Origin: Methanosarcina sp.
GTDB taxonomy: Archaea > Halobacteriota > Methanosarcinia > Methanosarcinales > Methanosarcinaceae
Direction of reading: 5' to 3'
Length of the DNA: 64,000 bases
Assembly (NCBI RefSeq): GCF_028693135.1
Contig: NZ_JAQUVZ010000009.1
Location: 62,001-126,000, forward strand
Each line of letters starts with the position of its first letter. The stretch's first letter is position 1. Of the stretch, positions 6,206 to 31,031 are shown in pieces. The notes below the pieces were generated by a model. It was not told where the DNA came from. It saw only the letters and a list, made by a program, of their open reading frames with translations, and ran no database searches. Made by a program: the position numbers and the translations under genes.

Positions 6206-6298
6206 GTCTCTTGTCCCTCTTCCTGTAATTTCAGCTCGGGTTCTATTTTAGAGGAGATTTAATTATTATTGTTTGAACCCAGGCTCCTTAATTTTAGT

Positions 6299-6442: not shown

Positions 6443-6484
6443 ATCGTATCTAAATCCTGTCTTAATCCCGGCATTAATCCGGTC

Positions 6485-8722: not shown

Positions 8723-8847
8723 CTATATCCCCGTCTTTCCAGGACTCTAGAACCGACAAATCAGTCCCTGTATAAACCCTTAATTTATAATTATTCAGAT
8801 AATGTTGATCATAGATCTCCGCACTATGCATCCGGGCAGGCAACGAG

Positions 8848-9103
8848 ACTTCAAATCCCTGCTTAATGGATACTGCTTTCGAATAAAAATCTCCGAAAAA
8901 CGTCATATTCCTCCTGCAGTACGGTTTCAAGCTCTGTTTTAGCGGGTTATGTATTACAATTATTTGTAGAAAGAGGTATCCTGTTTCGGGTCAAACAGTT
9001 TCAATTCAGTCTTAATGGTTCTTGCTTTCGAATAGTACATATAATTATCCGTCGGGGATATATTTAAGTAAAAATTCCTGTTTAATGGGCATCGCTTTCG
9101 AAG
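8848..9103 (-). CRISPR. Fossil CRISPR mini-array, four decayed repeats
   Basis: Four segments align by eye with the 37-bp repeat of the active array: 8848-8884 (about 27/37), 8924-8960 (about 24/37), 8998-9033 (about 29/37, 1-bp deletion) and 9068-9103 (about 23/37). Start-to-start distances are 76, 74 and 70 bp, the period of the active array (73). Three of the four share private changes (TTAATGG, CTTTCGAA), so they decayed together or come from an older repeat variant. A fifth copy near 9138 is doubtful. Fossil spacers would be 8885-8923, 8961-8997 and 9034-9067. Confidence 0.7.
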
Positions 9104-9225
9104 CATTATTTTCGAACCGTTATTTTCGAACCGTTATTTTCAAAGCTTATGATTTATCTCCGAAGGCGGGAAGACCCTTCTTCAAAAATCTGAGCCGTCA
9201 GACAAAGATGTTAGGGAGTAGGAGT

Positions 9226-9408
9226 TCATTGGTAGTTCATTGTTTTTACCGTTCTTCCCTTGATGATTCCAGGTACTGTTATGGCTTTCCAGAGTTTTTC
9301 TGCTTCCCTGAATTTTCTTTTGTTACCGGGTGAACCGTAAAAAATCTGGCTACATCCGTTTCCTGTACAAACCGAAAAATAACCAGAGTATTGTTTTACG
9401 AGCTCGTC
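9226..9408 (-). pseudogene. Possible short coding remnant
   Basis: A minus-strand frame of about 60 codons without a start reads plausibly as protein (e.g. YSGYFSVCTGNGCSQIFYGS, then REAEKLWKAITVPGIIKGRT) between in-frame stops. No family is recognised. It may be the tail of a lost gene. The surrounding 9104-9590 stretch shows nothing else. Confidence 0.2.
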
Positions 9409-9590
9409 CTACTTCGTACGTCTTCTAATGCGCACTGTTTGAACCGCTTCTTCTTCAGATGCCCGGAATTTGTCCGTGAATCCCTCAGTCAGATATTATA
9501 AAAAAAAGTTATTTTTGGGAGTGATTGCAAAAGAATCATCCGGACCAAAACTGAATGCTACTAAAAATTTAGAGTAATTAAAGCTCGAAA

Positions 9591-9938
9591 TCAGAGGTTA
9601 TAGTATTCTATGACACACTCTCTAAATAATTCTTTGGATTTTTTAAACCCTTCATGTATTCCATCTAAATGGTCCCGGGAATAATTTGGTTTTTCTTTAA
9701 CTGCAATCGCGTCTATCATAAGATTAAACCTTTCCTGCAGGCTCTGTATTTTTGCAGCTGGACCTTCACCTGAAGCGGGGAAAATAAATTTATCCACATT
9801 TTCCTCAAAAGTATCTTTGGCGATCTCCAAACCTTCATTTATTCCTTCTTTAAAATCTGAATAAGCCCGGTTATCCTTATTTCTCTCGATCAAATCACTA
9901 AATTTTCTAACTGTTTTAGTAATTATTATTTGATCCAA
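9591..9938 (-). CDS. Hypothetical helical protein (115 aa)
   Basis: A 115-residue, charged, mostly helical cytoplasmic protein starting at TTG, chosen because a GGAGGGG ribosome site lies 7 bases upstream. Two similar halves are visible: FKEGINEGLEIAKDTFEEN (residues about 29-47) and LDGIHEGFKKSKELFREC (about 92-109), suggesting an internal duplication of a G-I-(N/H)-E-G helix motif. No known domain. It is flanked on both sides by fossil CRISPR repeats. Confidence 0.6.
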   Translation of the reverse strand: MDQIIITKTVRKFSDLIERNKDNRAYSDFKEGINEGLEIAKDTFEENVDKFIFPASGEGPAAKIQSLQERFNLMIDAIAVKEKPNYSRDHLDGIHEGFKKSKELFRECVIEYYNL

Positions 9939-9991
9939 AGTTTGCCCCTCCGTACAAAAAGATAAAAAGAACGTTTATGCCACAAAAAGAA

Positions 9992-10106
9992 GTCAGGATC
10001 CCTATTTTAGCAGATCTTGCTTATGAATAATGAATTTAGTTATTATTATCACTACTTTATATGTACTTTCGTTTCAGTCCTGGTTTTAGCGAATTTGCTT
10101 GCGGAT
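9992..10106 (-). CRISPR. Two fossil CRISPR repeats
   Basis: 9992-10028 matches the active repeat at about 26/37 and 10071-10106 at about 31/37 with one deletion; starts are 79 bp apart. Both keep the TTTTAG centre and the TTGCTT..G.AT end. The fossil spacer is 10029-10070. Confidence 0.65.
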
Positions 10107-10142
10107 ATAATAATCCAGGATCTTCATCATTCTCTATGGGAA

Positions 10143-10232
10143 TCTTCGTCGTTCTCTATGGATAAGGTGATTTTCAATTCAAGACCGAATTGATTTTTAT
10201 GAGGATATCCATACAAAACAACGAAAAGCCAT
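10143..10232 (+). repeat. 90-bp dispersed repeat, copy 2 (inverted partner at 1651-1740)
   Basis: The reverse complement of this segment matches 1651-1740 at about 86 percent by eye. It lies just beyond the stop of the secreted repeat protein. The function of the repeat is unknown. Confidence 0.6.
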
Positions 10233-10261
10233 AAAAAGAAAAAAAGAAAAGGGAATAAAGA

Positions 10262-11284
10262 TTACCAATAAATTTTATAATCTTTCACAGTTCCCATGCT
10301 ATCAAAGTATGTATTCGAGCAGAATAAAGGAACTCTTATATACTGTTTTCCGGCACTTACTGACACTGTTGTGTCGTAGCATTCCCCGCCTTCCGGAGTG
10401 CCAGTGCAATCAATAAACACAAGCCCCTTATCAGACGTTTGGAACGCATTGCAGGCATGATTGATGCCATTCAACGAAACCCACCCTGCTTTAATCCCTG
10501 CGTTCTCAGCGTTGTTATGGACGGTTTCCGCAAAATCTCCGCAGGCATAAGTTTGGGTATATCGCTTCTGATCGGTGGTGTCTTTTTGGATAAATGAAAC
10601 TAATTGAGCATATGTCGGGTCTTTTGCCTGGTTGCTGTTAATAAGGGCTATTCTCTGCCCGTCAGCTCCGACCCACCAGGTGTTACCTTCATGCGGGTTT
10701 ACTGTTGTTAGTTCAGGAGTTGCAGGTTCGACAGGAGTAACCGGATCTTCTGGGGTTATAGGGTCTTCAGGAGTTGCAGGTTCGACAGGAGTAACCGGAT
10801 CTTCTGGGGTTATAGGGTCTTCGGGAGGTGCAGGTTCGACAGGAGTAATCGGATCTTCTGGAGTTAGAGGGTCTTCAGGAGGTGCAGGTTCGACAGGAGT
10901 AACCGGATCTTCTGGAGTTAGAGGGTCTTCAGGAGGTGCAGGTTCGACAGGAGTAACCGGCTCTTCTGGGATTATAGGGTCTTCAGGAATTGCAGGTTCG
11001 ACAGGAGAAACCGGCTCTTCGGGGATTATAGGGTCTTCAGGAGTTACAGGTTTATCCCATTTTTTAGAATCCCTGTGATTCCTCGATTCTTTAGAAGTTC
11101 TATAATCCTTTGAATGCGATACGCCCTGATCTTCATGATTCAAGTATTTGTCTCGCTGATCAGATACACAGGAATTCGAGGACTGCCCTTTGTCATAATG
11201 ATCCCCGTTTGCATGTGCGGCCACGGCGGGCATTGTTACTACCATCAAAACAAATAGAGTAATAAATATTTTGTATATGTTCAT
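10262..11284 (-). CDS. Secreted Pro/Glu-repeat protein with transglutaminase-like C-terminal domain
   Basis: A 340-residue exported protein. Residues 1-25 form a signal peptide ending near VAAHA. A hydrophilic His/Ser/Asp segment follows. Residues about 83-190 consist of an 18-residue repeat built from PEDPVTPVEPA-type units. The C-terminal ~150 residues form a compact domain with a likely Cys-His-Asp triad: Cys248 in YACGDFAE, His276 in INHACNAF and Asp292 in VFIDCTG. This is transglutaminase/NlpC-like in order, but the exact family is not certain. The repeat is probably an extended cell-surface stalk. It stands alone, with fossil CRISPR repeats on both sides. Confidence 0.75.
   Translation of the reverse strand: MNIYKIFITLFVLMVVTMPAVAAHANGDHYDKGQSSNSCVSDQRDKYLNHEDQGVSHSKDYRTSKESRNHRDSKKWDKPVTPEDPIIPEEPVSPVEPAIPEDPIIPEEPVTPVEPAPPEDPLTPEDPVTPVEPAPPEDPLTPEDPITPVEPAPPEDPITPEDPVTPVEPATPEDPITPEDPVTPVEPATPELTTVNPHEGNTWWVGADGQRIALINSNQAKDPTYAQLVSFIQKDTTDQKRYTQTYACGDFAETVHNNAENAGIKAGWVSLNGINHACNAFQTSDKGLVFIDCTGTPEGGECYDTTVSVSAGKQYIRVPLFCSNTYFDSMGTVKDYKIYW
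10716..11039. repeat. 54-bp coding tandem repeat, six copies
   Basis: Six head-to-tail 54-bp units (starts 10716, 10770, 10824, 10878, 10932, 10986) encode the 18-residue Pro/Glu repeat of the secreted protein. The first two units are almost identical; the outer ones have diverged. The frame is preserved, so copy number can change without breaking the gene. Confidence 0.9.
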
Positions 11285-11621
11285 ATTTAGCTCCTATTTA
11301 ATGAAAAGATGTGGCTCGTCGCTTTTGTGAGAGGGTTAAAAATACTTTTTTAGTTTGGAGATGACCCTGCCAAAAAAAGAAACATCAAGCTTGAATATGA
11401 TTTTCAACAACAAATGTTTTTAAATTTTACATATGTTAGGTCAATATTTAGGAAATGAATGTAAATTACCAATTCGAAACAGCGAATAGCCAAAGGTTTT
11501 CAACTCTTGTTTGGGGAGGATTACTGGCAAATCATATGTATTTTTTATTGGATGTAATAATATATAATACTTTGTGAATATATTATAATATTTATGATAT
11601 ATATTTACATGATTAAAATAA

Positions 11622-11897
11622 TTACTAACACTTCATTTAGTGGATAATGATAGCGAATCATTGATTGAGCAGAAGGTGAAAACTTAGTTTCCAAATATTA
11701 AGTATATATAAATATTTTTACAAATATACGATCGCGATAGATGCCAATTTTGAAATCCAGTAAAAAGGATTATGTGCTTACATTTAAGCGAATAATTCAA
11801 CATCATGAGACGTTTATATGCCTAAAAATAAGGAACTTCGGGTGAAAGAAAGATCTTATGGTTTCAATTCGTGTTTTAGTGGATCTTGCTCACAAAA
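11622..11897 (-). CRISPR. Two fossil CRISPR repeats in an AT-rich gap
   Basis: 11861-11897 matches the active repeat at about 32/37 (its last seven bases have decayed); 11622-11658 matches at about 25/37, mostly in the 3' half (TTTAGTGGAT and GCGAAT kept). They are not in period with each other, so sequence has been lost or gained between them. The rest of the 11285-12000 gap is AT-rich with no gene; a short plus-strand frame at 11818 only reads through the repeat. Confidence 0.65.
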
Positions 11898-12000
11898 TTT
11901 TCTAATACAATCGTTCCAACAACCTGACAGGCATCCGCTTGGCAGAGAATTTTATCAAGTAGTAAAAATAGAATATAATAAATATAATACACAATTTGAG

Positions 12001-13302
12001 TTATTTGAAAAATTTGTTATATATTGTAAAAATAGCGCTCGACAGATGTTCTTTCTTCAGGTGTCCGGCACCGCCGGGTCTGCAAGAATTGACCAGCCAG
12101 TTGTAAAAGAGCTTAGAGAATTCCACACCCACAGTGTCGACGTACTTATAAAATAGATAGCTCAACGGAATTATTAAAAATAATGACAGGAAGCATGAAA
12201 TTAAAGCAGCCGCTCCATATGGCAATGCCGGGTACAGGACGAGGAACACTGCACAGGTGAAACTGCTTATCACCAGGAAATGTATCAGGTACAGAGAATA
12301 GGAGATTTTTCCAAGGAACACCGGCACGGGGGACGAAAAAAAGTTTTGCAGCATTCGACTGTTCAATAAGACAAAGATTGTCATGCCGGAGCCTATAATA
12401 TGATAGGTCACCTCCGGGGTTTTGAAAAGGCCGTTATTGAGAAACCCGTATAAGGAATCGGTTGTTACGGGGCTTAAAGGGTAGGACCCGAGAAACAATC
12501 CCAGGATCAGAATAATGGATAATATTGTTTTATTACCTGTTTTATTACCTGTTTTATTACCTGTTTTATTACCTGTTTTATTACCTGTTTTATTACCTGT
12601 TTTAAGTACCGGCATCTTACTGCTGGACGTGTCGGCGAGCACCATTCCTATTATAAAACCCAGATAGAAAGAGTTGAGGAAAAGCACGGCTGCGGCAAGG
12701 TAAAATATAAAGCGGTTGCGCAGCGATCCGAACAGTAATGCCATTGCGAAAACGAGCATCGACCCAAAAAATTCTATTTTCATCGTCCATAAAACCGGGT
12801 TATAAGCGGTCTTGCCGCCTACAAAAAACGAGCCCCATACCGCCTGCTTAACCGCATTGACGATATCCGGCGTAAAGTTCCAGTAGTCGCGGTAATTACT
12901 GCCTGCGGAAATTACCATAGTTTCGAGATAATAACGGTACAATCCGGCTGATGCCAGTAAGTATGAGAGCATTACTGCTGCAAATACCGGTACAAACAAC
13001 CTTAGATATCGGCGCACTGCGCTGCTTATAATTACGCTGTTTTCCTTCGTTTCAAAGTATTTTTGAGTTAATACGTAGCCGCTCAGGACGAAGAAGATAC
13101 TCACTGAAAAGTTGCCGGCGCCAATTAATCCCAGGGGTGTGCTCGAAAAAAGCAGGTCAAGGTTTCCGAAATGCGAGGGCAACTGACTGCCATAGACCAT
13201 CGCCGGAGCTAATGCGACAAAGAAGTGCATTATCATAACATTAACAGCAGCTATACCGCGCAGCCCATCAAGATAGGTGATCTTCCCGGTCATATTTATC
13301 AC
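12001..13302 (-). CDS. Acyltransferase 3 family membrane protein (OafA/YrhL type)
   Basis: A 433-residue integral membrane acyltransferase that typically O-acetylates sugars of surface polymers. The N-terminus has LDGLRGIAAVNVMIMHFFV with the conserved membrane histidine, followed by FFVLSGYVLTQKYF and about ten hydrophobic helices, the usual layout of the family. A hydrophilic TGNK repeat inserted around residue 235 is encoded by a 12-bp satellite and probably forms a loop. No glycan-synthesis genes adjoin. Fossil CRISPR repeats lie on both sides. Confidence 0.88.
   Translation of the reverse strand: MINMTGKITYLDGLRGIAAVNVMIMHFFVALAPAMVYGSQLPSHFGNLDLLFSSTPLGLIGAGNFSVSIFFVLSGYVLTQKYFETKENSVIISSAVRRYLRLFVPVFAAVMLSYLLASAGLYRYYLETMVISAGSNYRDYWNFTPDIVNAVKQAVWGSFFVGGKTAYNPVLWTMKIEFFGSMLVFAMALLFGSLRNRFIFYLAAAVLFLNSFYLGFIIGMVLADTSSSKMPVLKTGNKTGNKTGNKTGNKTGNKTGNKTILSIILILGLFLGSYPLSPVTTDSLYGFLNNGLFKTPEVTYHIIGSGMTIFVLLNSRMLQNFFSSPVPVFLGKISYSLYLIHFLVISSFTCAVFLVLYPALPYGAAALISCFLSLFLIIPLSYLFYKYVDTVGVEFSKLFYNWLVNSCRPGGAGHLKKEHLSSAIFTIYNKFFK
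12529..12600. repeat. 12-bp coding satellite, six copies, inside the acyltransferase gene
   Basis: TTTATTACCTGT is repeated six times without a mismatch, encoding a run of Thr-Gly-Asn-Lys. The unit length is divisible by three, so slippage changes loop length without a frameshift. Confidence 0.95.
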
Positions 13303-13327
13303 TCCGGCTTCGTTGCCATCGTCTTCG

Positions 13328-13439
13328 TTTTCAATCCCTGTTTCAATGGATCTTGATCTCGAATATAAAAAAGATTTCTATTTGTTCACGCATCGCCCGT
13401 TTGTTTCAACCCGTGTTTTAGTGGACCTTACCCGGGAAT
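13328..13439 (-). CRISPR. Two fossil CRISPR repeats in period
   Basis: 13328-13364 and 13403-13439 each match the active repeat at about 31/37, with starts 75 bp apart, leaving a 38-bp fossil spacer (13365-13402). They fill the gap between the acyltransferase and SRPBCC genes. Confidence 0.8.
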
Positions 13440-13519
13440 CTGCCGTAGAGCGGCACAAATCCCTTTTCCGGACTTTTGCCACTTTTGAAAAAACACACAT
13501 GAAATAAAGGAATACAAAT

Positions 13520-13966
13520 TCAAAGTTTCGTTCTTCGTTCAGCTTCAGCTTTAAGGTATTGAAGCCCGGAGTTGATTGCTTTTTCCAGCGTTTTTTGCAT
13601 ATTGCCACTGAAAATGCGGGTAATGAGCCCTTCCCACGATTCTTCGGTCCTGATGGCAGTACTGCCATTTCGAGGTTCCAGTTTCCATACATGGATAGCA
13701 TATATGCCCAGAGTCTTACCTGTCCACGCCATTATACGGGGCCTTTCGACCTGCCTTATGGTTGAAATGATGGTTCCGGGCCCGCTTTTCCACCGGAACT
13801 TTGACCCGGCTTCAAACTGCCCGGAAAGAGCTGCCCAGCCGACATCCCGATTCCAATCCGGCCATTTATCTATGTCCGCCATGATGTCCCAGATTATTTC
13901 CGGACTGGCAGCGACTTCTATCTCGCCAGATGCAGAAACCGGTGCATTTTTGTTGATCACGGTCAT
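13520..13966 (-). CDS. SRPBCC (polyketide cyclase/dehydrase-like) protein
   Basis: A 148-residue START-like domain protein that should bind a hydrophobic ligand. Family features are the N-terminal strand ASGEIEVAASPEIIWDIMADIDKWPDWN, the central GSKFRWKSGPGTIISTIRQVE and the long C-terminal helix MQKTLEKAINSGLQYLKAEAE. The full domain length is present with no membrane segments. The ligand is unknown, and it has no operon partner. Confidence 0.85.
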   Translation of the reverse strand: MTVINKNAPVSASGEIEVAASPEIIWDIMADIDKWPDWNRDVGWAALSGQFEAGSKFRWKSGPGTIISTIRQVERPRIMAWTGKTLGIYAIHVWKLEPRNGSTAIRTEESWEGLITRIFSGNMQKTLEKAINSGLQYLKAEAERRTKL

Positions 13967-14094
13967 AATCCTGAATCACCCTTTTAGAATTTAGTACCTT
14001 TTATACATAAAGTTCTTCGAAATGGAATTAAATCTCTCTGGAATTAAATCTCTCCCACAATTTTTTCGGTGTAATGGCAGTTCACAGCCTGGCA

Positions 14095-14131
14095 GTTACA
14101 ATCCCTTTTTTAGTGGAACTAGCTCGCGAAT
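14095..14131 (-). CRISPR. Single fossil CRISPR repeat abutting a promoter
   Basis: Matches the active repeat at about 32/37, with the last ten bases (GCTCGCGAAT) intact. It ends four bases before the TATA-like stretch of the cupin gene, so the end of the repeat occupies the place where the BRE element would be. Confidence 0.8.
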
Positions 14132-14135
14132 GATT

Positions 14136-14143
14136 ATATATAT
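14136..14143 (+). promoter_or_regulatory. TATA box of the cupin gene
   Basis: TATATATA lies 22-29 bp upstream of the cupin ATG at 14165. Archaeal transcription begins about 25 bp after the TATA box, so the mRNA would be leaderless or nearly so; no ribosome site is seen before the ATG. Confidence 0.55.
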
Positions 14144-14164
14144 AATTAATATTAATTTAGAAAT

Positions 14165-14563
14165 ATGAAAGGGTTTTCTATTAATATCGAAGAAGCGACT
14201 CTGGAAAATAAGAATTTCCGCAAGGTACTTTACACCTCAAAGCACAGCCAGCTGGTCCTTATGAGCCTCAAGCCCGGGGAAGAAATCGGGATGGAAGTCC
14301 ATGAGGAAAACGACCAGTTTTTCCGTTTTGAAGCAGGCCAGGGGAAGTGCATAATTGACGGCAACGAACATGAACTCGGGGACGGGGTTGCAGTGGTAGT
14401 GCCCGCCGGCGCGCAGCACAATGTCATCAACACTTCAAAAACAGAGGACCTGAAACTCTACACGATCTATTCCCCGGCGCATCACAAGGACGGAATCGTG
14501 CGCGCCACGAAGGAAGAAGCCGAAGCCAATGAAGCGGAATTCGACGGAGTGACCACGGAATAA
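14165..14563 (+). CDS. Cupin-domain protein
   Basis: A 132-residue single-domain cupin, cytoplasmic. Metal-site motif 1 appears as GMEVHEENDQFFRFEAGQG (His and Glu ligands) and motif 2 as VVVPAGAQHNVIN. Size and arrangement match small cupin_2 proteins, which bind a divalent metal and serve as isomerases, dioxygenases or binding proteins. The C-terminus is an acidic helix rich in Glu/Ala. Transcribed alone from a promoter that abuts a fossil CRISPR repeat; a hairpin terminator follows 50 bp after the stop. Confidence 0.88.
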   Translation: MKGFSINIEEATLENKNFRKVLYTSKHSQLVLMSLKPGEEIGMEVHEENDQFFRFEAGQGKCIIDGNEHELGDGVAVVVPAGAQHNVINTSKTEDLKLYTIYSPAHHKDGIVRATKEEAEANEAEFDGVTTE

Positions 14564-14615
14564 GCTGATAAGTTCATAAGAAACGGTAATCGATTAAGCA
14601 TTGACAATGCAAAAT

Positions 14616-14645
14616 AAAAACGCTTTATTTTCAGAAAGCGTTTTT
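14616..14645. terminator. Hairpin terminator between convergent genes
   Basis: AAAAACGCTTT and AAAGCGTTTTT form an 11-bp stem around an 8-base loop, with T runs on either strand. It can end transcription of both the cupin gene (plus) and the converging membrane gene (minus). Confidence 0.7.
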
Positions 14646-14725
14646 ACTTTTGTATCTTTTTTATCTTTTTTGTTCCTTTACGGCATGTAAAAATTAAAAA
14701 CTGTATAAGAATTTTTTTCACCGAT

Positions 14726-15091
14726 TTATTTCTGAATCACTTCTTTACGCCAGCCGACAGCAAGAGGAAGAACAAAAGTCAAAGCGTAATACAGGTAAAC
14801 ATCCAGCTTATAATATCCGTCCGCCGGCTTGAAAGCTTTTAAAAGGAAAAAATAATCAAAAACAATTGCTATCAAAACCCAGACGACCGCCAGAAACGCA
14901 TAATAACGAAATGAATCTGCTTTGATTTTCTTTAATAACACCCAGAGCGTGACGATCGTCCCGACCGGCATAATAATCCAGCCGATTATGGAAGTTGGAA
15001 TAATTGAAAAAAGCATAATTCCTAGAGCATACTCGATAAGCCAGAGAATAAATCCCCAGCCGAGCGCATCTTTATAAAATTGATTTATCAC
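14726..15091 (-). CDS. Small integral membrane protein (four helices)
   Basis: A 121-residue hydrophobic protein with four predicted helices at about residues 10-30, 37-55, 65-83 and 98-115. Polar signatures are YKDALGWGF at the start and GWIIMPVGT in helix 2. Similar proteins are found in both archaea and bacteria and have no known function. It stands alone and converges on the cupin gene. Confidence 0.65.
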   Translation of the reverse strand: MINQFYKDALGWGFILWLIEYALGIMLFSIIPTSIIGWIIMPVGTIVTLWVLLKKIKADSFRYYAFLAVVWVLIAIVFDYFFLLKAFKPADGYYKLDVYLYYALTFVLPLAVGWRKEVIQK

Positions 15092-15333
15092 AAAAATACC
15101 CCTTTAATTTTTATTGTTCGACCCTGTTAATTATATCAATTTTGGTTAAGAATACACGAATGTATCTATATAAAAATAAATTAACAGAACAAAGCATAGA
15201 AGGAGACAAAATTAGCGAAATGCTGAAATTGCAGAAACCAGAAAAATTATAATTTTGAACTGGATTCGGCTTTGCAAAAATCTTCGATGGAGAGATGCCG
15301 GAGCTTCCGACTTTCCAGAAGACGGTGATTGTA

Positions 15334-15370
15334 GTTTCTATCCTTGTTTTAGAGAACCTTGCTCGGGAAT
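15334..15370 (-). CRISPR. Single fossil CRISPR repeat
   Basis: Matches the active repeat at about 32/37, with differences scattered along the unit. No convincing neighbours one period away. It lies about 240 bp upstream of the small membrane gene. Confidence 0.75.
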
Positions 15371-15643
15371 GTATATCGACCGATATTTCCCGGGTATTTC
15401 TGCAACTGGAATTCAAAATGCCCTGTGTGGATATAAACCTGTAGGACCATATATACAAAGATATTACTTTTAATTGTCAAAGTTTATATACTAATCCGAC
15501 ATATACATACATAGAATCCGACGTATGTATACAGGGCAATCTAGTAGTTGAATTAGTTCGTCGGGTTCGTTCGTAAAAAAACATATCCATATGCGGGTGA
15601 TGTTGTGTGTTTCAACCACATGACACCACTCCTCCATCCTTAA

Positions 15644-15828
15644 TATCTAATTCTCATTTTGACGGATGTTTCTCGCAAATATTGAAGTACAGGTTATTGT
15701 GTTGGTTTTTCTGGCAATTTGGCTTCGTCTTTCATAATAGATCTGCTCAAGAATAATTTTTATTGCACTTGTTTGGAAAAAACCACCTGATGTTTCCGTC
15801 CTTTTTTTAGTGGTTCTTGTTCGCGAAT
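15644..15828 (-). CRISPR. Three fossil CRISPR repeats in period, two of them very worn
   Basis: 15792-15828 matches the active repeat at about 32/37. One period before, 15717-15754 keeps AGATC.TGCTC..GAAT, and 15644-15680 keeps GGAT.TT.CTCGC.AAT (about 24/37). Starts are 73 and 75 bp apart; the two weak copies are accepted mainly because of this register. The rest of the 1.3-kb gap 15092-16376 is AT-rich, with a possible short coding remnant at about 15830-15962 (ending KKAINHFC) that I cannot assign. Confidence 0.55.
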
Positions 15829-16240
15829 AATGGCCTTTTGATTAATCAATGTTTTAACTCTGAGTTTCTCTTAAAATTTAGTATTAGGAAATATAAAATA
15901 CATATTCCTGATGATGTTCTTGGTATTACGGCATTAAAAAAAGCCATAAATCATTTCTGCTAAATAAGCAAAAAGCGCACCTAAATCGATAGCAAAAAGC
16001 ATGTCAATATTCACCTCTTATTAGCTGCTCTTTTTCTATGAAGTGTTTTAGGAACTTTGGATATTTAATTGGTTTTGCATGTTAAAATGTTACAATGTGG
16101 GGGTAGACATTACCAAAACTTATACCATGGCTTCTTATTTCCTGGCGTTTCGATGGCATTCTAATTGATGAGCGTTTGAACCTGCAGGAAGTAGTTATTA
16201 TACGTTATTTTAAGATTCTATTTATTCTGGCTGTTCTTAT

Positions 16241-16277
16241 GTTTCCATCTTTGTTTTAGTGGATCTTGATCGCGAAT
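16241..16277 (-). CRISPR. Single well-preserved fossil CRISPR repeat
   Basis: Matches the active repeat at about 34/37; the middle ten bases are intact. It lies between the decayed region and the 3' end of the UbiA gene. Confidence 0.85.
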
Positions 16278-16285
16278 CCACCATT

Positions 16286-16323
16286 GGGGCAGAATCCCCG
16301 AAAGTGCGGGCTAATTCCCGCAC
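16286..16323 (-). terminator. Pair of GC hairpins beyond the UbiA stop
   Basis: GTGCGGG/CCCGCAC (7-bp stem, 6-base loop, 16304-16323) and GGGG/CCCC (6-base loop, 16286-16299) lie 54-90 bp past the stop of the minus-strand UbiA gene. They may form a 3' end structure. There is no T run, so confidence is low. Confidence 0.35.
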
Positions 16324-16376
16324 CTGTCCGTTGCACATGGTGTTAAGAGGCTTAGAATCAAATTGCTACCAGACTT

Positions 16377-17246
16377 TCACCTGACCATTCGAATGAGTAT
16401 GAAAATTAAGAATGCCGCCAATCCACTCAGGTAGATCCAGCGAATATAAATTCGCCGATTTACTATTCTCGAGTCTAGCAATTTACTCGTTGAGTACAGA
16501 ATAACTACATCCATCAGTAAAATGGAAAACAGATAAATCCACTCTAACCAGCCCAACAAAAACGGCAAGCTACTTGCAACAATCACCAGTAAGAAAATCG
16601 CTCCGCTGATTTTCAACGCGTTTTCGCGGCCAAGTACCAGAGCTAAGGAACGGGACCCTGCCTGACGATCGCCTTCGACATCCATACCATCTGCCGCAAT
16701 TTCTTCCCCTAAATTTATAAGCGACACTATGATTGCGAAAAACCAGACTATTATTTCAAATGGTTTACCTACTACTATACCACCAAAAACAAAAGTCATA
16801 CCAACCGAAAAGCTAACCATCAGATTTCCAATCAAACCAGCCTTTTTGAACCGCCAATTGTAAAGAAAACCCACTGCCCAGACTAAAATAACTACTAACA
16901 AAGCCTCCAGGCTTATCAGGTAGCCTATGATAAATCCAAGCATTGTCACTACAATGGAGAGTAAAACAACATCTTGCTCAGTAACAAGCCCTGCCGGGAG
17001 CGGCCTTTCCGGCGCGTTTATTCTGTCACTTTCGATATCAAAATAATCATTCAGGATCAGAGCAGCAGCCGAAATAAAAAAAATGCTTAGAAACCCCAAT
17101 ACAATTTCGGTCATTGTGGGGAGTTCACCTAATGCCAATAATTCCCCTAATATCACGCACACCCCCGCAATAAGTGGCAGCTCAAAACGGAATAAGCGAA
17201 ACAGACCCAGCATTCTTGTTCTAAACATAACAGTATTTCCTCTCAC
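16377..17246 (-). CDS. UbiA-family prenyltransferase, digeranylgeranylglyceryl phosphate synthase-like
   Basis: A 289-residue polytopic membrane enzyme with about eight to nine helices. Both aspartate-rich motifs of the UbiA superfamily are present: NDYFDIESDRINAPERP (residues 66-82) and DGMDVEGDRQAGSRSLA (about 187-202). These bind Mg2+-prenyl diphosphate. The motif wording and size resemble archaeal DGGGP synthase, which adds the second geranylgeranyl chain to the membrane lipid, but a role in another prenylated lipid or quinone is possible. The start at 17246 is the best supported by length; the track of fossil CRISPR repeats continues 43 bp upstream. Confidence 0.8.
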   Translation of the reverse strand: MRGNTVMFRTRMLGLFRLFRFELPLIAGVCVILGELLALGELPTMTEIVLGFLSIFFISAAALILNDYFDIESDRINAPERPLPAGLVTEQDVVLLSIVVTMLGFIIGYLISLEALLVVILVWAVGFLYNWRFKKAGLIGNLMVSFSVGMTFVFGGIVVGKPFEIIVWFFAIIVSLINLGEEIAADGMDVEGDRQAGSRSLALVLGRENALKISGAIFLLVIVASSLPFLLGWLEWIYLFSILLMDVVILYSTSKLLDSRIVNRRIYIRWIYLSGLAAFLIFILIRMVR

Positions 17247-17288
17247 AATTGACTCAATATTTGCAGCCCAGCTATTAAGATACGGAGG

Positions 17289-17325
17289 GTTTCAATCCTT
17301 TTTTTGGTGGATCTTGCTTACAAGC
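17289..17325 (-). CRISPR. Single fossil CRISPR repeat with decayed end
   Basis: Matches the active repeat at about 30/37: the first ten bases and GGATCTTGCT are intact, the last seven mostly lost. The rest of the 17247-17561 gap holds short direct repeats (ATATG(T/C)CAG.TTTTCATACT, TTCATTTGTTA) and no gene. Confidence 0.75.
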
Positions 17326-17561
17326 GAACGGCCTACACTTGATAAAAAAGAGATAAATGTTGGGGACGGTATTTGTGTTGAGGAAGGTCTTTGAGAAGAT
17401 TACGAAATAATCCCTGGCACAATTGGTATATATCACTATTTTCTACTCATTTTTCTATAATGTTGACATCATTTGGAGTGAATACACCAAATATGTCAGA
17501 TTTTCATACTAAATATGCCAGGTTTTCATACTTCATTTGTTACTACTTCATTTGTTAGACT

Positions 17562-18908
17562 TCATTTTTTCATGCTTTTTAACATAATCCCGACTACTGC
17601 CAGAGATACAACCACGATCACGACACTCAGTACGGTATTTTTGTCCTTCTTAGACTCTGTTTCTTCGGGATTTCCCAGTTCGCCCACGGATCTGCTTTCA
17701 GCAGAAATCTGAGTGCTTTCTTCCGGGGTCTTCTGCGAGTCATTGCCGGTAATCGCAAAAGATGCATAGCCAGGAACTTCTGAAGTGAAGTACAGATACT
17801 TATCAGTCTGTCCTGTCAGATTGGCTGGCAGCTGCTCCCAGGTTTGTTCTTTGTACCTGTTAAGCACTATAGAAGCAGGATCGATATGCTCTTCCTGGAC
17901 CCATGCCTTTTCTACCCTGAAACTCAGGACAGGATTTTCTATTTTCTTTGAGGTTGAATATCCGGCGGTTCCTACCCACACATTAAAGGATTTGTAGACC
18001 TCTCCATCAGGCAGGTCTGATACAAGTACGGACTTGCCCTTTAATTGCTCAACAGTGGTTGTGGTCTTGCCTACACTTTCAACCGAATCAAAGTCCACAT
18101 ACACAACACAGGTTGCACCCTTTGCAAATTCAAACCTGACAGCCTCACCGTTTGTAATGAATACCTTTGAAAGCTCCCTTACTTCAACATTATTTGCAGG
18201 CTCAGGAGACACGCTGTCGCCACCTCCACTACTGCTCCTGCTGCTGCTTCCACTGTCATCAGGGGGAGTTACAGGGGACTCCTCAGGAGTTGGGGTTGGG
18301 GTTGGTTCAGGAGTTAGATCTATTGGTTCTGTTGGATCTGTAAGATTAGTCGAATCTGCTGGATCAGTCGAATCTGCTGGATCTGCTGGATCTGCAGTAT
18401 CTTCTGTATCTGCTGGATCAGCTGGATCTGCAGTATCTTCTGTATCTGCTGGATCAGCTGGATCTGCAGTATCTTCTGTATCTGCTGGATCAGCTGGATC
18501 TGCAGTATCTTCGGTATCTGCTGGATCAGCTGGATCTGCAGTATCTTCGGTATCTGCTGGATCTGCTGGATCTGCAGTATCTTCGGTATCTGCTGGATCA
18601 GCTGGATCTGCAGTATCTTCTGTATCTGCTGGATCTACTGGATCTTCTGTATCTGCTGGATCTGCTGGATCAGAAGTTGGCTCAGGGGTAGGTTCAAGAG
18701 CAGGATCCTGGTGCTTCTCCAGAGGCACCAGAGGCTCATCAGCAGAAAAAAGTGCAGCAGACGTACTGCCAGAAATAACCTGAAGTATAAGAGCTACTGT
18801 AAATAAAATGAAGAATATCCTTTTTGCAGTCAGAATAACACCCCTGTGTTTTTTAATTCCGTTATTGCCCACACTATATAAATTAATATTTATTTTCTCC
18901 TGATTCAA
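17562..18908 (-). CDS. PGF-pre-PGF domain surface protein with Asp-Pro-Ala repeats
   Basis: A 448-residue exported and anchored protein. A hydrophobic signal/anchor spans about residues 28-52. Residues about 70-180 are the acidic repeat DPADPADTEDTA, followed by Pro/Thr and Ser/Gly linkers. Residues about 235-400 match the PGF-pre-PGF domain of Methanosarcina envelope proteins (SFRVEKAWVQEEHIDPASI, LNRYKEQTWEQLPANL, YLYFTSEVPGYASFAITG). A C-terminal hydrophobic helix near 425-443 with a basic KSMKK tail is a membrane anchor. The partner is unknown; it is probably an S-layer-associated stalk protein. Fossil CRISPR repeats flank the gene. Confidence 0.85.
   Translation of the reverse strand: MNQEKININLYSVGNNGIKKHRGVILTAKRIFFILFTVALILQVISGSTSAALFSADEPLVPLEKHQDPALEPTPEPTSDPADPADTEDPVDPADTEDTADPADPADTEDTADPADPADTEDTADPADPADTEDTADPADPADTEDTADPADPADTEDTADPADPADTEDTADPADPADSTDPADSTNLTDPTEPIDLTPEPTPTPTPEESPVTPPDDSGSSSRSSSGGGDSVSPEPANNVEVRELSKVFITNGEAVRFEFAKGATCVVYVDFDSVESVGKTTTTVEQLKGKSVLVSDLPDGEVYKSFNVWVGTAGYSTSKKIENPVLSFRVEKAWVQEEHIDPASIVLNRYKEQTWEQLPANLTGQTDKYLYFTSEVPGYASFAITGNDSQKTPEESTQISAESRSVGELGNPEETESKKDKNTVLSVVIVVVSLAVVGIMLKSMKK
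18388..18639. repeat. 36-bp coding tandem repeat, seven copies
   Basis: Units start at 18388 and then every 36 bp to 18604, nearly identical, encoding the 12-residue acidic Asp-Pro-Ala repeat of the surface protein. Degenerate units flank both ends. The period is a multiple of three, so the frame survives copy-number change. Confidence 0.92.
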
Positions 18909-18980
18909 CCCTTAATTAAGTCACTGGAATTTGCACTCTCGGCTGTGTGTCCAGGATAGACTCATTTTTATTGTACCGTT

Positions 18981-19162
18981 TTTTGTCACAGATTGAGAGG
19001 TTTTTTGCTTTCGAATCCGAACTCATATCATGTATGGATGTTTTTAGACCGCTGTTTCAATCCCTGTTTTAGTGGATCTTGCTCGCGAATACCGCTTAGA
19101 TTGACAAAGTTGACGGAAAAATTAAGTTTCAATCTCTGACGAGTTTTCAAACCAGTTGCAAT
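18981..19162 (-). CRISPR. Three fossil CRISPR repeats in period, next to the active array
   Basis: 19054-19090 matches the active repeat at 36/37. 18981-19017 keeps only the 3' end (TTGCT..CGAAT). 19126-19162 keeps only the 5' end (GTTTCAATC). Starts are 73 and 72 bp apart, leaving fossil spacers at 19018-19053 (36 bp) and 19091-19125 (35 bp). This block is separated from the active array by the toxin-antitoxin module. Confidence 0.85.
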
Positions 19163-19195
19163 CAGGATCTTTCGATTTCACGTCGATGATCAACA

Positions 19196-19456
19196 TCAAT
19201 ATACATCGTCATGATGACCATAATATTCCAGAATAACAATTTTTTCCTTTTCATCCACAGAAAAAAGCAATACAAAGTGAGAGTCAATATGCACTCTTTT
19301 CCAGTGATTGAGAGGGGATCTCAAATTTTGGTATCTGTGAGGGTCCTGAACTATCTCATTCACCTTGCTGAATATAATTTCAACCTGTTTTTTGTCTTTT
19401 TTGCCAGCTTTTCAACAGTTTTGTTGAACTTCTGGCCTTACCTATAGCCGATACAT
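19196..19456 (-). pseudogene. RelE-type toxin, inactivated
   Basis: The frame downstream of the antitoxin encodes a RelE/ParE-like mRNA interferase, recognisable from VEKLAKKDKKQVEIIF, then VQDPHRYQNL, LNHWKRVHIDSHFVLLFSVD and a C-terminal YYGHHDDVY. It starts at ATG 19456, but codon 5 is TAG and a frameshift lies near GTTCAACAAAAC about ten codons later, so no full-length toxin can be made. The stop is TGA at 19196. The gap to the antitoxin is 13 bp, the layout of an antitoxin-first TA operon. Loss of the toxin leaves the antitoxin as an orphan. Confidence 0.75.
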
Positions 19457-19469
19457 GTCAGGTCAACAG

Positions 19470-19715
19470 TTAAGCATTTTTTTCAAGCATTTTTTTCCAG
19501 TTCTCAACTGTTCCCACATCTATAAGCTCCTGGTTCATGATTTCCCGGGCCTTTTCAACAAATTCAGGTCTAAGCTCAGGCTCCATAAGTTCTTTTTCAT
19601 ATTCAGCTGCCATACGCATAATAGCAGAACTTTTATCTTTCAAGCCATATTTGGCTTTTATAATATTAAGGATACGATTTGTTTTTTCGTCAATATTGAT
19701 CATTGCCTGGACCAT
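19470..19715 (-). CDS. DUF2683-like antitoxin
   Basis: An 81-residue protein starting MVQAMINIDEKTNRIL, preferred over a longer in-frame start because the TATA and operator-like sequence lies just before this ATG. The N-terminal part looks like a ribbon-helix-helix DNA-binding motif (MINIDEKTNRILNIIKAKYG, then KSSAIMRMAAEYE). The C-terminal ELIDVGTVENWKKML should wrap the toxin. DUF2683 proteins commonly precede RelE genes in Methanosarcina. Here the partner toxin is broken. The module sits between a fossil repeat block and the trailer end of the active CRISPR array. Confidence 0.75.
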   Translation of the reverse strand: MVQAMINIDEKTNRILNIIKAKYGLKDKSSAIMRMAAEYEKELMEPELRPEFVEKAREIMNQELIDVGTVENWKKMLEKNA

Positions 19716-19718
19716 TAT

Positions 19719-19735
19719 GTATACACCATATATAC
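19719..19735 (-). promoter_or_regulatory. Operator/promoter of the antitoxin gene
   Basis: GTATACACCATATATAC has a 5-bp inverted repeat (GTATA/TATAC) around a 7-base centre, immediately upstream of the antitoxin ATG and within the TATA-rich promoter. A ribbon-helix-helix antitoxin would be expected to bind such a site to repress itself. Confidence 0.45.
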
Positions 19736-19802
19736 ATTGAATATATACCATAGATATATATTTAATTATGAACCGGGTCATACCGGCGAAAAAAGCGATC
19801 CT

Positions 19803-22800
19803 GTTTTAATCCTTGTTTTAGTGGATCTTGCTCGCGAATATTTTTGCCCTGAACAAAAGCAGTCAGCCACGTCTGTTTCAATCCTTGTTTTAGTGGATCT
19901 TGCTCGCGAATTCATCATATTATTCCGAGATCTAAGGGGGGGAGTGAGTTTCAATCCTTGTTTTAGTGGATCTTGCTCGCGAATTGCGCCATATACACAT
20001 ATTTACAAGTGTCATAACTGGTTTCAATCCTTGTTTTAGTGGATCTTGCTCGCGAATTTTACAGATCGTACTCATTTATTATTTCCTCTTTAGTTTCAAT
20101 CCTTGTTTTAGTGGATCTTGCTCGCGAATAACTCCCTGAAAGTACGGGGGCTTTGTCACTAGCTGTAGTTTCAATCCTTGTTTTAGTGGATCTTGCTCGC
20201 GAATTTTTGAACTCCTCAAATAGTTTTATATATGTCTACTTATATACATTATAGTTTCAATCCTTGTTTTAGTGGATCTTGCTCGCGAATTTTAGAGAGG
20301 GGATTCGGAAGAGATATGCGGTACATTGTTTCAATCCTTGTTTTAGTGGATCTTGCTCGCGAATAACTAGAGGTAACCCCTGCTATATTTAGCGAATATG
20401 GTTTCAATCCTTGTTTTAGTGGATCTTGCTCGCGAATAAAAAGGAGTTGAAATGAATGGAACTTGAAGATCTGTTTCAATCCTTGTTTTAGTGGATCTTG
20501 CTCGCGAATGGTATAGAATCCATGTCAACGTCACACAAAAATACGTTTCAATCCTTGTTTTAGTGGATCTTGCTCGCGAATTCAGAATCACCCTGCCCTA
20601 ATTCAATATCATAACTCAGTTTCAATCCTTGTTTTAGTGGATCTTGCTCGCGAATTTGCAGCATATTTACGTACAAGAAACCATGATACAGTTTCAATCC
20701 TTGTTTTAGTGGATCTTGCTCGCGAATAATAGATCAGCTGTCCGGACTTGGCTTTTCTGCAACGTTTCAATCCTTGTTTTAGTGGATCTTGCTCGCGAAT
20801 ATTCGCGAGTACAAATTTTAAGTGCTGCCAGAATGTGTTTCAATCCTTGTTTTAGTGGATCTTGCTCGCGAATGGCTTCCGGCTTGTTAGTTCGGAACAA
20901 CCTAATTGTGTTTCAATCCTTGTTTTAGTGGATCTTGCTCGCGAATCGGAATATGAAGATAGGTTACCGATGAGTACGGGGGGTTTCAATCCTTGTTTTA
21001 GTGGATCTTGCTCGCGAATCTGGGAAGTTGTCAACGGTCTTAATGTTGGAAATGATGTTTCAATCCTTGTTTTAGTGGATCTTGCTCGCGAATTCGACCT
21101 GAAAATTAACGGTGTCCGGGTCGAAAGTTTCAATCCTTGTTTTAGTGGATCTTGCTCGCGAATAGGGCAAGCCCGGAAAGGTTAGAAGCCGTATTAAAAT
21201 GTTTCAATCCTTGTTTTAGTGGATCTTGCTCGCGAATTAGGTCATTCCTTCAATTGCGTCAGTGTTCTTTGAAGTTTCAATCCTTGTTTTAGTGGATCTT
21301 GCTCGCGAATAGCATGGGTTATGCCCAAAAGGAACGAACACTGGTACGTTTCAATCCTTGTTTTAGTGGATCTTGCTCGCGAATTTTATTGTAGTAGTAA
21401 TTACGTATGTAAGTAGATAGGTGTTTCAATCCTTGTTTTAGTGGATCTTGCTCGCGAATCCGAAGAGTCCGGCATGTAGCATGATGGTCTGGAAAGTTTC
21501 AATCCTTGTTTTAGTGGATCTTGCTCGCGAATTTTTAGTCCCCCGGTTCTTTTTTGATTGCCCAAAGAGTTTCAATCCTTGTTTTAGTGGATCTTGCTCG
21601 CGAATCCCCCTGTTATAAGATTTATTTAGACTTCCTTTTTAGGTTTCAATCCTTGTTTTAGTGGATCTTGCTCGCGAATCGCGTCTGCCCTGCTACGGAT
21701 AGGATCATCCACTATGTTTCAATCCTTGTTTTAGTGGATCTTGCTCGCGAATGCGACAATGACATTATTGGTGTAGCCTGATGTTCTTGTTTCAATCCTT
21801 GTTTTAGTGGATCTTGCTCGCGAATAAAAAATATTATACCGGCAAGTGCGGTATATGGAAGGTTTCAATCCTTGTTTTAGTGGATCTTGCTCGCGAATGC
21901 TGTTCAGGAGTGTAGTTTTTGAGCCCTTCGGTTTCAATCCTTGTTTTAGTGGATCTTGCTCGCGAATAATACCAAGGTTATTGAAATACTACGCAACTGG
22001 CGAAGTTTCAATCCTTGTTTTAGTGGATCTTGCTCGCGAATATTTGTGGGCATTGTGTGTCTGACTGTCGTCCTAATATAGTTTCAATCCTTGTTTTAGT
22101 GGATCTTGCTCGCGAATTTTTTCAAGTCTTTTTGTTTCTGTAGCAGACATTTAGTTTCAATCCTTGTTTTAGTGGATCTTGCTCGCGAATTGAGGAAAAC
22201 AAAGATAACCCTAAGTACGTTGAAAGTTTCAATCCTTGTTTTAGTGGATCTTGCTCGCGAATCTAAATTACTAATTTCATACCATCCTTCATAATTTTGT
22301 TTCAATCCTTGTTTTAGTGGATCTTGCTCGCGAATAATATCAGTGGGAAAGAATATGAACATTTCCTAAAATGTTTCAATCCTTGTTTTAGTGGATCTTG
22401 CTCGCGAATTCTGATCCTATGTTGGAATTGCTTACTGAAGATGGGGTTTCAATCCTTGTTTTAGTGGATCTTGCTCGCGAATTAACATACCATGTTGCTG
22501 TTGCTTCCTTTGAATAATGTTTCAATCCTTGTTTTAGTGGATCTTGCTCGCGAATATCAATATCTATTACAGTCCATGATATGTCGTCGCGGTTTCAATC
22601 CTTGTTTTAGTGGATCTTGCTCGCGAATATGGGCAGTTTGTACCCAATTCGATGAAGTATGGGAGTTTCAATCCTTGTTTTAGTGGATCTTGCTCGCGAA
22701 TTGTAGTAGAAAACCAACACGCTGAATCCTTCATAAGTTTCAATCCTTGTTTTAGTGGATCTTGCTCGCGAATATCGCCCCAGAAGCTGCGCTGGCAATG

Positions 22801-25037: not shown

Positions 25038-25149
25038 AGGGCAAAAATTTCCGGCGTTTGGCCAGAAAAGGCTTAAAATGAGCCCTTTTTCGGGGCTAAA
25101 ATTCTTGCTGGAAAATTATCAAACCCTTTATAAATACAAGAAAAACATC
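25038..25149 (-). promoter_or_regulatory. CRISPR leader with promoter
   Basis: 112 bp between cas4 and the first repeat. On the minus strand it carries a TATA box TTTATAAA (25127-25134), putting the transcription start near 25100, about 65 bp before the first repeat. An imperfect hairpin (AAAGGGCT...AAGCCTTTT) lies at about 25065-25090. New spacers should be added at the 25037 boundary. Confidence 0.7.
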
Positions 25150-25857: not shown

Positions 25858-25872
25858 ATGAACCTCAAAAAC

Positions 25873-26290
<418 letters not shown>

Positions 26291-31022: not shown

Positions 31023-31031
31023 GTTCTTAAC

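What the first reader, a model, noticed from the sequence alone, without database searches (positions are those of the whole stretch)
8848..19162. Fossil CRISPR repeats dispersed through ten kilobases of ordinary genes
About 20 segments resembling the 37-bp active repeat lie outside the array, in almost every intergenic gap between the permease (ends upstream at 8722) and the array (19803). All have the same orientation as the active array. Approximate match by eye: 8848 (27/37), 8924 (24), 8998 (29), 9068 (23), 9992 (26), 10071 (31), 11622 (25), 11861 (32), 13328 (31), 13403 (31), 14095 (32), 15334 (32), 15644 (24), 15717 (weak), 15792 (32), 16241 (34), 17289 (30), 18981 (weak), 19054 (36), 19126 (weak). 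Where two or more lie together their starts are 70-79 bp apart, the array period. The simplest reading is that the array once reached about 8.8 kb and was opened by repeated gene-sized insertions, possibly by recombination using repeats, while old repeats decayed. That would make the trailer side of a CRISPR array a landing zone for cargo genes.
Basis: partly seen in the sequence, partly recalled or inferred. Interest (0 to 1): 0.88.

Follow-up and report, generated by a model that had tools for sequence, protein, structure and literature searches.

The report
Genes archived in a decaying CRISPR tail
In Methanosarcina archaea the old end of a CRISPR immune-memory array has filled up with ordinary genes over a long time, and the decaying CRISPR repeats left between them seem to be points where those genes are swapped in and out, rather like cassettes.

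Summary
At 22/37 or more identities, 16 repeat-like sites lie in 8.7-19.8 kb, all on the array's strand; none lies on the other strand or in the remaining 47.6 kb.

The fossils lie on the trailer side of a live I-B array (72 repeats). In 18 loci from 30 genus genomes, 163 fossils scoring 15 or more lie on the array's strand, 0 on the other. Orthologous spacers between fossils show that real repeat-spacer units existed before these species split. 189 intervening ORFs (mechanically called) form 99 families, 79 in one genome only. Of 20 loci outside Methanosarcina none shows such a field; four have an array split by one or two other stretches.

Homology breakpoints fall inside fossils four times more often than expected, and two gene modules are shared from repeat to repeat in unrelated surroundings. 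Best reading: a gene-filled, decaying CRISPR trailer whose leftover repeats act as recombination points, so that genes behave like cassettes. Shown: anatomy and joints. Inferred: the machinery and how genes first enter.

The parts
19803..25037 (+). live CRISPR array, 72 repeats of 37 bp (repeat as written on +; leftward transcription is inferred)
25038..25149 (-). leader side of the array; the first 100 or so bases are the same as beside the second array of the genome (C22)
   Evidence: sequence; cas4 follows
25150..33904 (-). type I-B cas genes; cas4, cas1, cas3, cas5b, cas7, cas8b recognised among the proteins scanned
34128..34730 (+). Csa3-type CARF regulator beside cas8b, as MM_0565 in M. 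mazei
   Evidence: PMC7465815, passages
8848..9104 (+). oldest fossil units: repeats at 8848, 8924, 8998 and a weak one at 9068, with spacers orthologous to those of relatives
9591..9938 (-). gene C (115 aa, no Pfam family); relatives of it in the loci of 15 of 19 other genomes
9992..10106 (+). fossil repeats 9992 and 10071; left flank of 10071 shared with G008, G010, G011
10262..11284 (-). gene D (340 aa); not found in the relatives' fetched loci; partial relatives elsewhere in genomes
11622..11897 (+). fossil repeats 11622 and 11861; in G008 the right flank of 11861 and the left flank of 10071 meet at one single repeat
12001..13302 (-). acyltransferase (Acyl_transf_3) gene; in the loci of 8 of 19 other genomes
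13328..13439 (+). fossil repeats 13328 and 13403 with the spacer orthologous to G020
13520..13966 (-). gene F (Polyketide_cyc2, 148 aa); matched in no other Methanosarcina, patchy in other genera of the class
14095..14131 (+). fossil repeat about one spacer length before the cupin start; same position in several relatives
14165..14563 (+). cupin gene (132 aa); in the loci of 15 of 19 other genomes; close relatives in Patescibacteria MAGs
14726..15091 (-). ORF H (121 aa, no Pfam family)
15334..15828 (+). fossil repeats 15334, 15644, 15792
16241..17324 (+). repeat-bounded UbiA module: repeat 16241, UbiA-family gene (16377-17246, - strand), repeat 17289; 90% identical to G012 from repeat to repeat with different outer flanks
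17562..18908 (-). gene J (448 aa, repeat-rich, no Pfam hit)
19054..19090 (+). youngest fossil repeat, 36/37
19470..19781 (-). gene K (DUF2683, 103 aa) beside the array end

Best explanation
The stretch is the old (leader-distal, trailer) part of a type I-B CRISPR array that has been filling with single genes and small gene modules since before the species that share the locus diverged, while its repeats decay without visible selection. Shown: side and orientation, strand bias, orthologous repeat-spacer units, patchy cargo, and homology breaks concentrated inside repeats. Inferred: because genes come to lie between directly repeated 37-bp sequences, homologous recombination between repeats can excise a gene together with one repeat, delete it, or bring a repeat-bearing module into another repeat. 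Genes in the trailer then behave like cassettes, always in the same orientation, and the array offers many target sites. How a gene first enters (most likely illegitimate insertion into unselected spacer DNA) is not shown.
For: Strand and side: 163 sense vs 0 antisense fossils scoring >=15 in 18 loci; at >=11, 226 vs 6 in the zones, 8 vs 2 on the leader side (117 kb, 8 loci) and 6 vs 4 left of the zones (99 kb). Real old units: orthologous spacers between fossils. Decay rather than kept function: among six close genomes fossils are less conserved than the spacers beside them (0.86/0.90, 0.74/0.77, 0.73/0.81). Gene-sized intervals: 3 of 642 in 10 live arrays, 114 of 182 in trailer zones. Patchy cargo: 79 of 99 ORF families in one genome; F matched in no other Methanosarcina, at least 20 of which are listed without a match. 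Exchange at repeats: 119 of 1,354 homology ends lie inside fossils, against a mean of 27 and a maximum of 51 in 500 shifts. G008 has S1-repeat-S2 where the window has S1-repeat-D-repeat-S2. A G008 repeat is half fossil, half live consensus, and no cupin gene was found in that genome at E<=1e-45. The methyltransferase module of G001 and G029 is shared from the first base of the left repeat to the last base of the right one (88%, 1,321 bp) with different outer flanks; the UbiA module of window and G012 behaves likewise to within 9 bp. Behind one shared unit G003 has spacer X, G005 another spacer and a Doc-type pair before spacer X, G029 a third spacer and the methyltransferase module. Strand of shared families: 443 same, 0 different (plain inheritance would give this too).
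Against: 1,235 of 1,354 homology ends lie outside fossils. Repeat score rises towards the array in 15 of 17 tested loci, but with p<0.01 in only 4. Sharing of a family does not fall with nearness to the array (rho -0.09, p 0.22). Two fossils >=15 stand on the leader side (G010 17.4, G004 15.4). The recent duplicate pair in G007 (99% over 787 bp) begins 15-20 bp outside the left repeat and ends 19-30 bp before the next repeat. The Doc and acetyltransferase-like modules of G005 meet the repeat edge on one side only. Most empty sites do not tell insertion from deletion. Permease and cupin are neighbours without repeats in one outgroup genome. No repeat-bearing virus contig or plasmid was found.
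Confidence: 0.68

Rival explanations
1. Neutral dump: genes inserted at random into unselected array DNA, repeats decayed, and ordinary repeat-to-repeat deletion trimmed the rest. The repeats have no special part in gene movement.
For: Explains strand bias, decay, patchy cargo and single-repeat deletion scars. Recombination between direct repeats of CRISPR loci has been inferred before (PMC4390879, passages and section 4.5 seen).
Against: Does not by itself explain modules shared repeat to repeat between different contexts (G001/G029, window/G012) or different content behind one shared unit in G003, G005 and G029.
Confidence: 0.22
2. Genes first: the gene row is ancestral and CRISPR repeats were scattered into its gaps afterwards.
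For: Gene order is well conserved among the loci (208 concordant, 7 discordant pairs). Permease and cupin are neighbours in one outgroup genome without repeats.
Against: Units 70-79 bp apart with orthologous spacers and one orientation only. In 15 of 16 outgroup genomes with both matches permease and cupin are not seen together: 6 on one contig at least 50 kb apart, 9 on different contigs (which is weak evidence); in 4 of the 16 the only permease match is a 54-56% relative. F is matched in no other Methanosarcina.
Confidence: 0.04
3. Giant spacers: Cas1-Cas2 integrates gene-sized DNA at the leader and the pieces drift to the trailer with age.
For: Genes sit between repeats, as integrated spacers do; two gene-sized intervals lie inside the G008 array.
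Against: Only 3 of 642 live-array intervals are gene-sized (the array was taken to start at the first four intact repeats in a row, which favours a low count). The methyltransferase module in G029 stands between old flanks shared with G005, which lacks it there, so it came to (or left) an old position.
Confidence: 0.03
4. Functional fossils: the degenerate repeats are kept as regulatory elements or mini-crRNAs of the adjacent genes.
For: A fossil stands about one spacer length before the cupin start in several species.
Against: Fossils are less conserved than the spacers beside them, and before cupin it is the spacer with a TATA-like stretch that is kept while the repeat fades in distant species.
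Confidence: 0.03

Closest known systems
Degenerate leader-distal (3') ends of CRISPR arrays
   Same: Repeat mutations, insertions and deletions accumulate away from the leader (PMC4869251, passages seen).
   Different: Described there for array ends; here decayed repeats run through 11 kb (window) to about 29 kb (G007) of protein genes, in many species of one genus.
[quoted passage not shown]
   Same: Foreign DNA between two repeats (PMC4390879, section 4.5 read).
   Different: That section says very few irregularities are seen in CRISPR loci; here gene-sized intervals are the rule in the trailer (114 of 182).
Recombination between direct repeats in CRISPR loci
   Same: Same inferred operation, there for Sulfolobus (PMC4390879, passages).
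   Different: Here it appears to remove, replace or join genes, not only spacers.
Integron gene-cassette arrays
   Same: Works like: rows of single accessory genes and toxin-antitoxin pairs in a common repeat frame, with exchange at the repeat (integron features recalled, from no call).
   Different: No integron integrase among the 40 proteins given to Pfam, attC not tested for, genes on both strands; not filed as a member.

Membership tests
Decayed CRISPR array (trailer) | Repeat copies in one orientation, same strand as the live array | tested here: met
   163 of 163 at score >=15; 226 of 232 at >=11
Decayed CRISPR array (trailer) | Units at array spacing with spacers inherited as units | tested here: met
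Decayed CRISPR array (trailer) | Leader-distal side | tested here: met
   leader right of the array and shared with the second array; fossils left
Decayed CRISPR array (trailer) | Repeat divergence grows with distance from the live array | tested here: inconclusive
   window rho 0.68, p 3e-3; positive in 15 of 17 loci, p<0.01 in 4
Integron | Tyrosine integrase IntI beside the row | tested here: inconclusive
   none among 40 proteins given to Pfam, a part of all ORFs
Integron | attC sites as recombination points | not tested
   the shared element is the CRISPR repeat; no attC model was run
Integron | Cassettes mostly in one reading direction (recalled) | tested here: not met
   genes on both strands, e.g. 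cupin + among - strand genes in the window, and mixed strands in G007 and G001
Cas1-Cas2 giant spacers | Gene-sized pieces enter at the leader end | tested here: not met
   3 of 642 live-array intervals; the two in G008 lie 39 and 46 repeats from the last repeat, the one in G012 lies 4 repeats from the contig end, leader not reached
Transposon-built island | Transposase or IS ends around the cargo | tested here: inconclusive
   transposase domains in the G007 and G001 zones, a transposase-like ORF by eye in G012, none among the window zone proteins scanned; terminal repeats not searched

The most novel reading that the evidence does not exclude
CRISPR repeats double as the recombination sites of a gene-cassette platform: a gene flanked by two repeats leaves as a circle carrying one repeat and re-enters, in the same orientation, at any of the many repeats of an array, also in another species. 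The immune memory of Methanosarcina thus recycles into an archive of accessory genes and a route for gene exchange.
Probability: 0.35. Interest if true: 0.92.

Novelty: new variant of a known kind. Interest (0 to 1): 0.8.

Why it matters
It gives the forgotten end of a CRISPR array an afterlife: non-coding repeat DNA made by the immune system becomes a place where genes settle and, it seems, an exchange platform whose repeats set orientation and boundaries. It offers a layered record of gene gain across a genus and a concrete candidate route for gene spread in archaea, where integrons are, from memory, little known. It also warns that the flank of an array is not always ordinary chromosome. 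It makes testable how arrays shed old spacers and what happens to that DNA.

Tried and rejected
First flank comparison with 60-bp flanks was discarded, because the flank reaches into the next repeat; it was repeated with 34 bp. There the null (99% at score 11, 99.9% at 25) probably contains true left-right overlaps, and the threshold of 16 lets some chance pairs in. A cruder local scan (score 12) gave 20 antisense hits over the 20 relatives' loci; the end-to-end scan gave 9 over 21 sequences at score 11 and is the one used for counts. Function of fossils by conservation: rejected. Sharing of gene families as a clock along the row: no trend. Vehicles: one viral-contig scan with a 33-letter repeat pattern found 0; the plasmid search found one 24-base partial match in Runella, judged chance. 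Ten literature searches of the open library showed no paper describing genes dispersed among fossil CRISPR repeats; only the listed titles and abstract starts were seen (8 of 8, 15 of 25, 0 of 0, 12 of 14, 14 of 14, 12 of 32, 20 of 437, 5 of 5, 3 of 3, 10 of 245), and most subscription papers are not held. One further review (PMC8616872) gave nothing on a term search. Considered and dropped: chance resemblance, assembly artefact (same picture in several closed genomes), giant spacers, genes-first.

Rows left out. Of 30 genus genomes 18 loci (own included) entered the counts. G002 and G024 were looked at only. G006, G015, G016, G017, G019, G021, G023, G025, G026 and G028 were not examined for the field. 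G022 has 3 sense fossils, one of them >=15, and no clustered ORF, so 17 genomes enter. Zones start at the permease where it is present and otherwise at another landmark (G001, G029, G012, G013, G014); where no live array lies in the fetched stretch, the zone runs to its end. ORFs are mechanical (80 aa or more, longest first), so some are not genes and some real genes are missed: cupin of G011, G001 and G029 is found by tblastn but not in the clusters. The control loci reach only 20 kb to each side of one cas1. Several outputs were cut.

Full report
WHAT WAS CHECKED. The live array at 19803-25037 has 72 copies of a 37-bp repeat. Counting identities to that repeat without gaps, the 11 kb to its left hold 16 positions at 22/37 or better, all on the array's strand; the other strand of that stretch and both strands of the other 47.6 kb hold none. 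With indels allowed the zone gives 17 sense and 0 antisense hits. Twelve stretches of the same genome, 212 kb, with no model hit inside them, give 5 weak hits on both strands, none reaching 13. A sequence model of 16 repeats, two of them live, run over the whole genome finds this zone, this array, a second array region and a handful of scattered copies; it scored only the best 150 of 3,521 candidates.

SIDE AND SYSTEM. To the right of the array lie the leader and type I-B cas genes (cas4, cas1, cas3, cas5b, cas7, cas8b recognised) and a Csa3-type regulator. The same leader sequence stands at the right end of the second array on C22. The zone is therefore on the trailer side. The CARF regulator beside cas8b is as in M. 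mazei (PMC7465815, passages seen).

RELATIVES. The genus holds 30 genomes, one per species. I fetched the matching locus where the DNA search showed one. In the 20 loci of 19 other genomes, relatives of C are found in 15 genomes, cupin in 15, the acyltransferase in 8, UbiA in 7 (in G011 only short pieces beside a fossil). The order permease - C - acyltransferase - cupin - UbiA - array is largely kept: single-copy shared ORF families are in concordant order in 208 of 215 comparisons and on the same strand in 443 of 443. Fossil repeats stand in the row in all 18 loci counted (only 3 in G022): 226 sense and 6 antisense at score 11 or more, 163 and 0 at 15 or more. Stretches of the same loci on the leader side (117 kb, 8 loci; 8 and 2, two of them above 15) and left of the zone (99 kb; 6 and 4) are near background. 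In G007 the field is 29 kb long before the live array. In G001 (its contig length is that of M. acetivorans C2A as I recall it) fossils of 15 or more span 26 kb, 35 kb with two weaker ones, and no array lies in the fetched stretch.

REAL UNITS, REAL DECAY. Upstream of the permease three to four fossils 70-79 bp apart align between the window and five close relatives together with their spacers, partly with five more distant ones, and are disrupted in G009. Beside the acyltransferase the window and G020 share repeat-spacer-repeat with an orthologous spacer. Among six close genomes the fossils are less conserved than their spacers (0.86 vs 0.90, 0.74 vs 0.77, 0.73 vs 0.81). Before cupin the spacer, with a TATA-like stretch, is kept and the repeat fades. 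Neutral decay is the simplest reading. In the window the score rises towards the array (rho 0.68, p 3e-3); 15 of 17 loci have a positive sign, 4 with p below 0.01.

THE GENES. 189 mechanically called ORFs of 80 aa or more in 17 genomes form 99 families, 79 in one genome only (some such ORFs will not be genes). Ten window proteins (the permease and nine zone ORFs) and 30 ORFs of G007 and G001 were given to Pfam. Matches include an acyltransferase, GNAT acetyltransferases, methyltransferases, an RNB-domain protein with a dsRNA-binding motif, GrpB, a family 46 glycosyl hydrolase, a Fic/Doc protein with an antitoxin-like partner, regulators, transposase domains and a group II intron protein; 15 of the 40 had none. 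Gene F matched 13 of 199 genomes of the class, the window's own being the only Methanosarcina; at least 20 others are listed without a match. Cupin has relatives of 79-88% identity in Patescibacteria MAGs. Outside the genus, 16 genomes have both permease and cupin matches: in one they are neighbours (G080), in six they are on one contig but at least 50 kb apart, in nine on different contigs; in four of the 16 the only permease match is a 54-56% relative.

NOT AT THE LEADER, NOT EVERYWHERE. In ten live arrays 3 of 642 repeat intervals exceed 150 bp; in trailer zones 114 of 182 do. In 20 loci outside Methanosarcina (40 kb around one cas1 each, six of them in the same family) the same kind of scan found no field of dispersed decayed repeats. 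Four have an array split by one or two other stretches (G299 1.5 and 8.6 kb, G035 2.2 kb, G213 8.5 kb, G095 0.3 kb); G091 and G050 hold relic arrays; the others have at most a few stray copies. The milder split-array form is thus not rare, while the gene-filled fossil field was seen only in Methanosarcina, as far as 20 loci tell.

EXCHANGE AT REPEATS. Of 1,354 homology ends between loci, 119 fall inside fossils; 500 random shifts gave 27 on average and 51 at most. With 34-bp flanks, 50 fossil pairs share both flanks, 33 only the left and 52 only the right (the threshold admits some chance). Single cases are plain. In G008 the flanks S1 and S2 meet at one repeat; in the window the same S1 and S2 are separated by repeat - gene D - repeat. 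G008's repeat beside the acyltransferase carries the private left half of the fossil in G010 and G011 and the right half of the live repeat, and the live array follows directly; no cupin was found in G008 at the cut-off used. Recombination between fossil and live repeat, deleting the genes between, is the natural reading. A methyltransferase module in G001 and G029 is 88% identical over 1,321 bp from the first base of one repeat to the last base of the next, with unrelated sequence outside. The UbiA module of the window and of G012 is 90% identical, also repeat to repeat (ends within 9 bp), and is the only shared stretch of 250 bp or more outside arrays between the window's first 20.4 kb and that 18-kb contig. 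Behind one shared unit G003 continues with spacer X, G005 with another spacer, a Doc-type pair and then spacer X, G029 with a third spacer and the methyltransferase module. The Doc-type module of G005 and G004 is 95% identical, the other shared stretches of that pair up to 89%.

MECHANISM. Shown: a decayed array with genes in it, older than the split of the species that share its units, and recombination joints at repeats. Inferred: homologous recombination between direct repeats excises, deletes and re-inserts gene modules; the array's many identical repeats are its targets; fixed orientation follows from directional repeats (it also follows from plain inheritance). Not shown: how a gene first enters, what carries modules between cells (searches found nothing), and whether any of this is active today.

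AGAINST. Most homology ends are not at repeats. The G007 duplicate pair (99%) is offset from repeat edges by 15-30 bp. Gene sharing does not decline towards the array. Most empty sites fit deletion as well as insertion. One genome per species hides recent events. Split arrays occur elsewhere too.

LITERATURE. A review of Sulfolobales (section 4.5 read, other passages seen) says that very few irregularities are seen in CRISPR loci, names an 899-bp fragment between two repeats in S. solfataricus, and infers recombination between repeats. CRISPRDetect (passages seen) describes decay at the 3' end. Ten searches of the open library listed no report of a gene-filled fossil field; long result lists were seen only in part, and subscription papers were not seen.

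VERDICT. I file it as a new variant of a known kind (trailer decay with insertion), with an integron-like cassette reading that the evidence does not exclude.

Noticed in passing
L139 (G000:C22:1-20000), 5087-7677, 7932, 8003, 10681, 11079: Second array with the same leader; degenerate repeats also lie beyond its leader, as if it stood inside an older fossil field. A second repeat type (same first 23 bases) forms an array at 1068-1916, next to a cas1 (C22:2508).
   Followed up: partly
L141 (G000:C58:250000-262000), about 5840-5955, - strand: Pair of old repeats about 72 bp apart, one resembling each repeat type, with no array seen in that stretch; single stray copies also on C69, C68 and C26.
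   Followed up: partly
window 14165-14563: The 132-aa cupin protein is 79-88% identical to proteins in many Patescibacteria MAGs, a striking cross-domain spread for a small gene (binning errors not excluded).
   Followed up: partly
L041 (G008), oriented 7070-14573: One array alternates blocks of two repeat types (26 repeats, then a run of the other type, then 7 and 39), with two gene-sized intervals inside.
   Followed up: partly
window 12530-12605: Short tandem repeat inside the acyltransferase gene; alignments to relatives break there.
   Followed up: no
window 19162-19781: DUF2683 gene beside the array end, with a short possibly broken frame before it; could be a toxin-antitoxin remnant (by eye only).
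   Followed up: no
L043/L156 (G007), oriented 29726-30519 and 32899-33686: Two Doc-type modules 99% identical, 3 kb apart, close to the live array: a recent duplication within the field.
   Followed up: partly
L222/L223 (G035), joined coordinates 5722-18684: In another genus of the family one repeat type forms three blocks split by 0.1 and 2.2 kb; a possible early stage of the same process.
   Followed up: no
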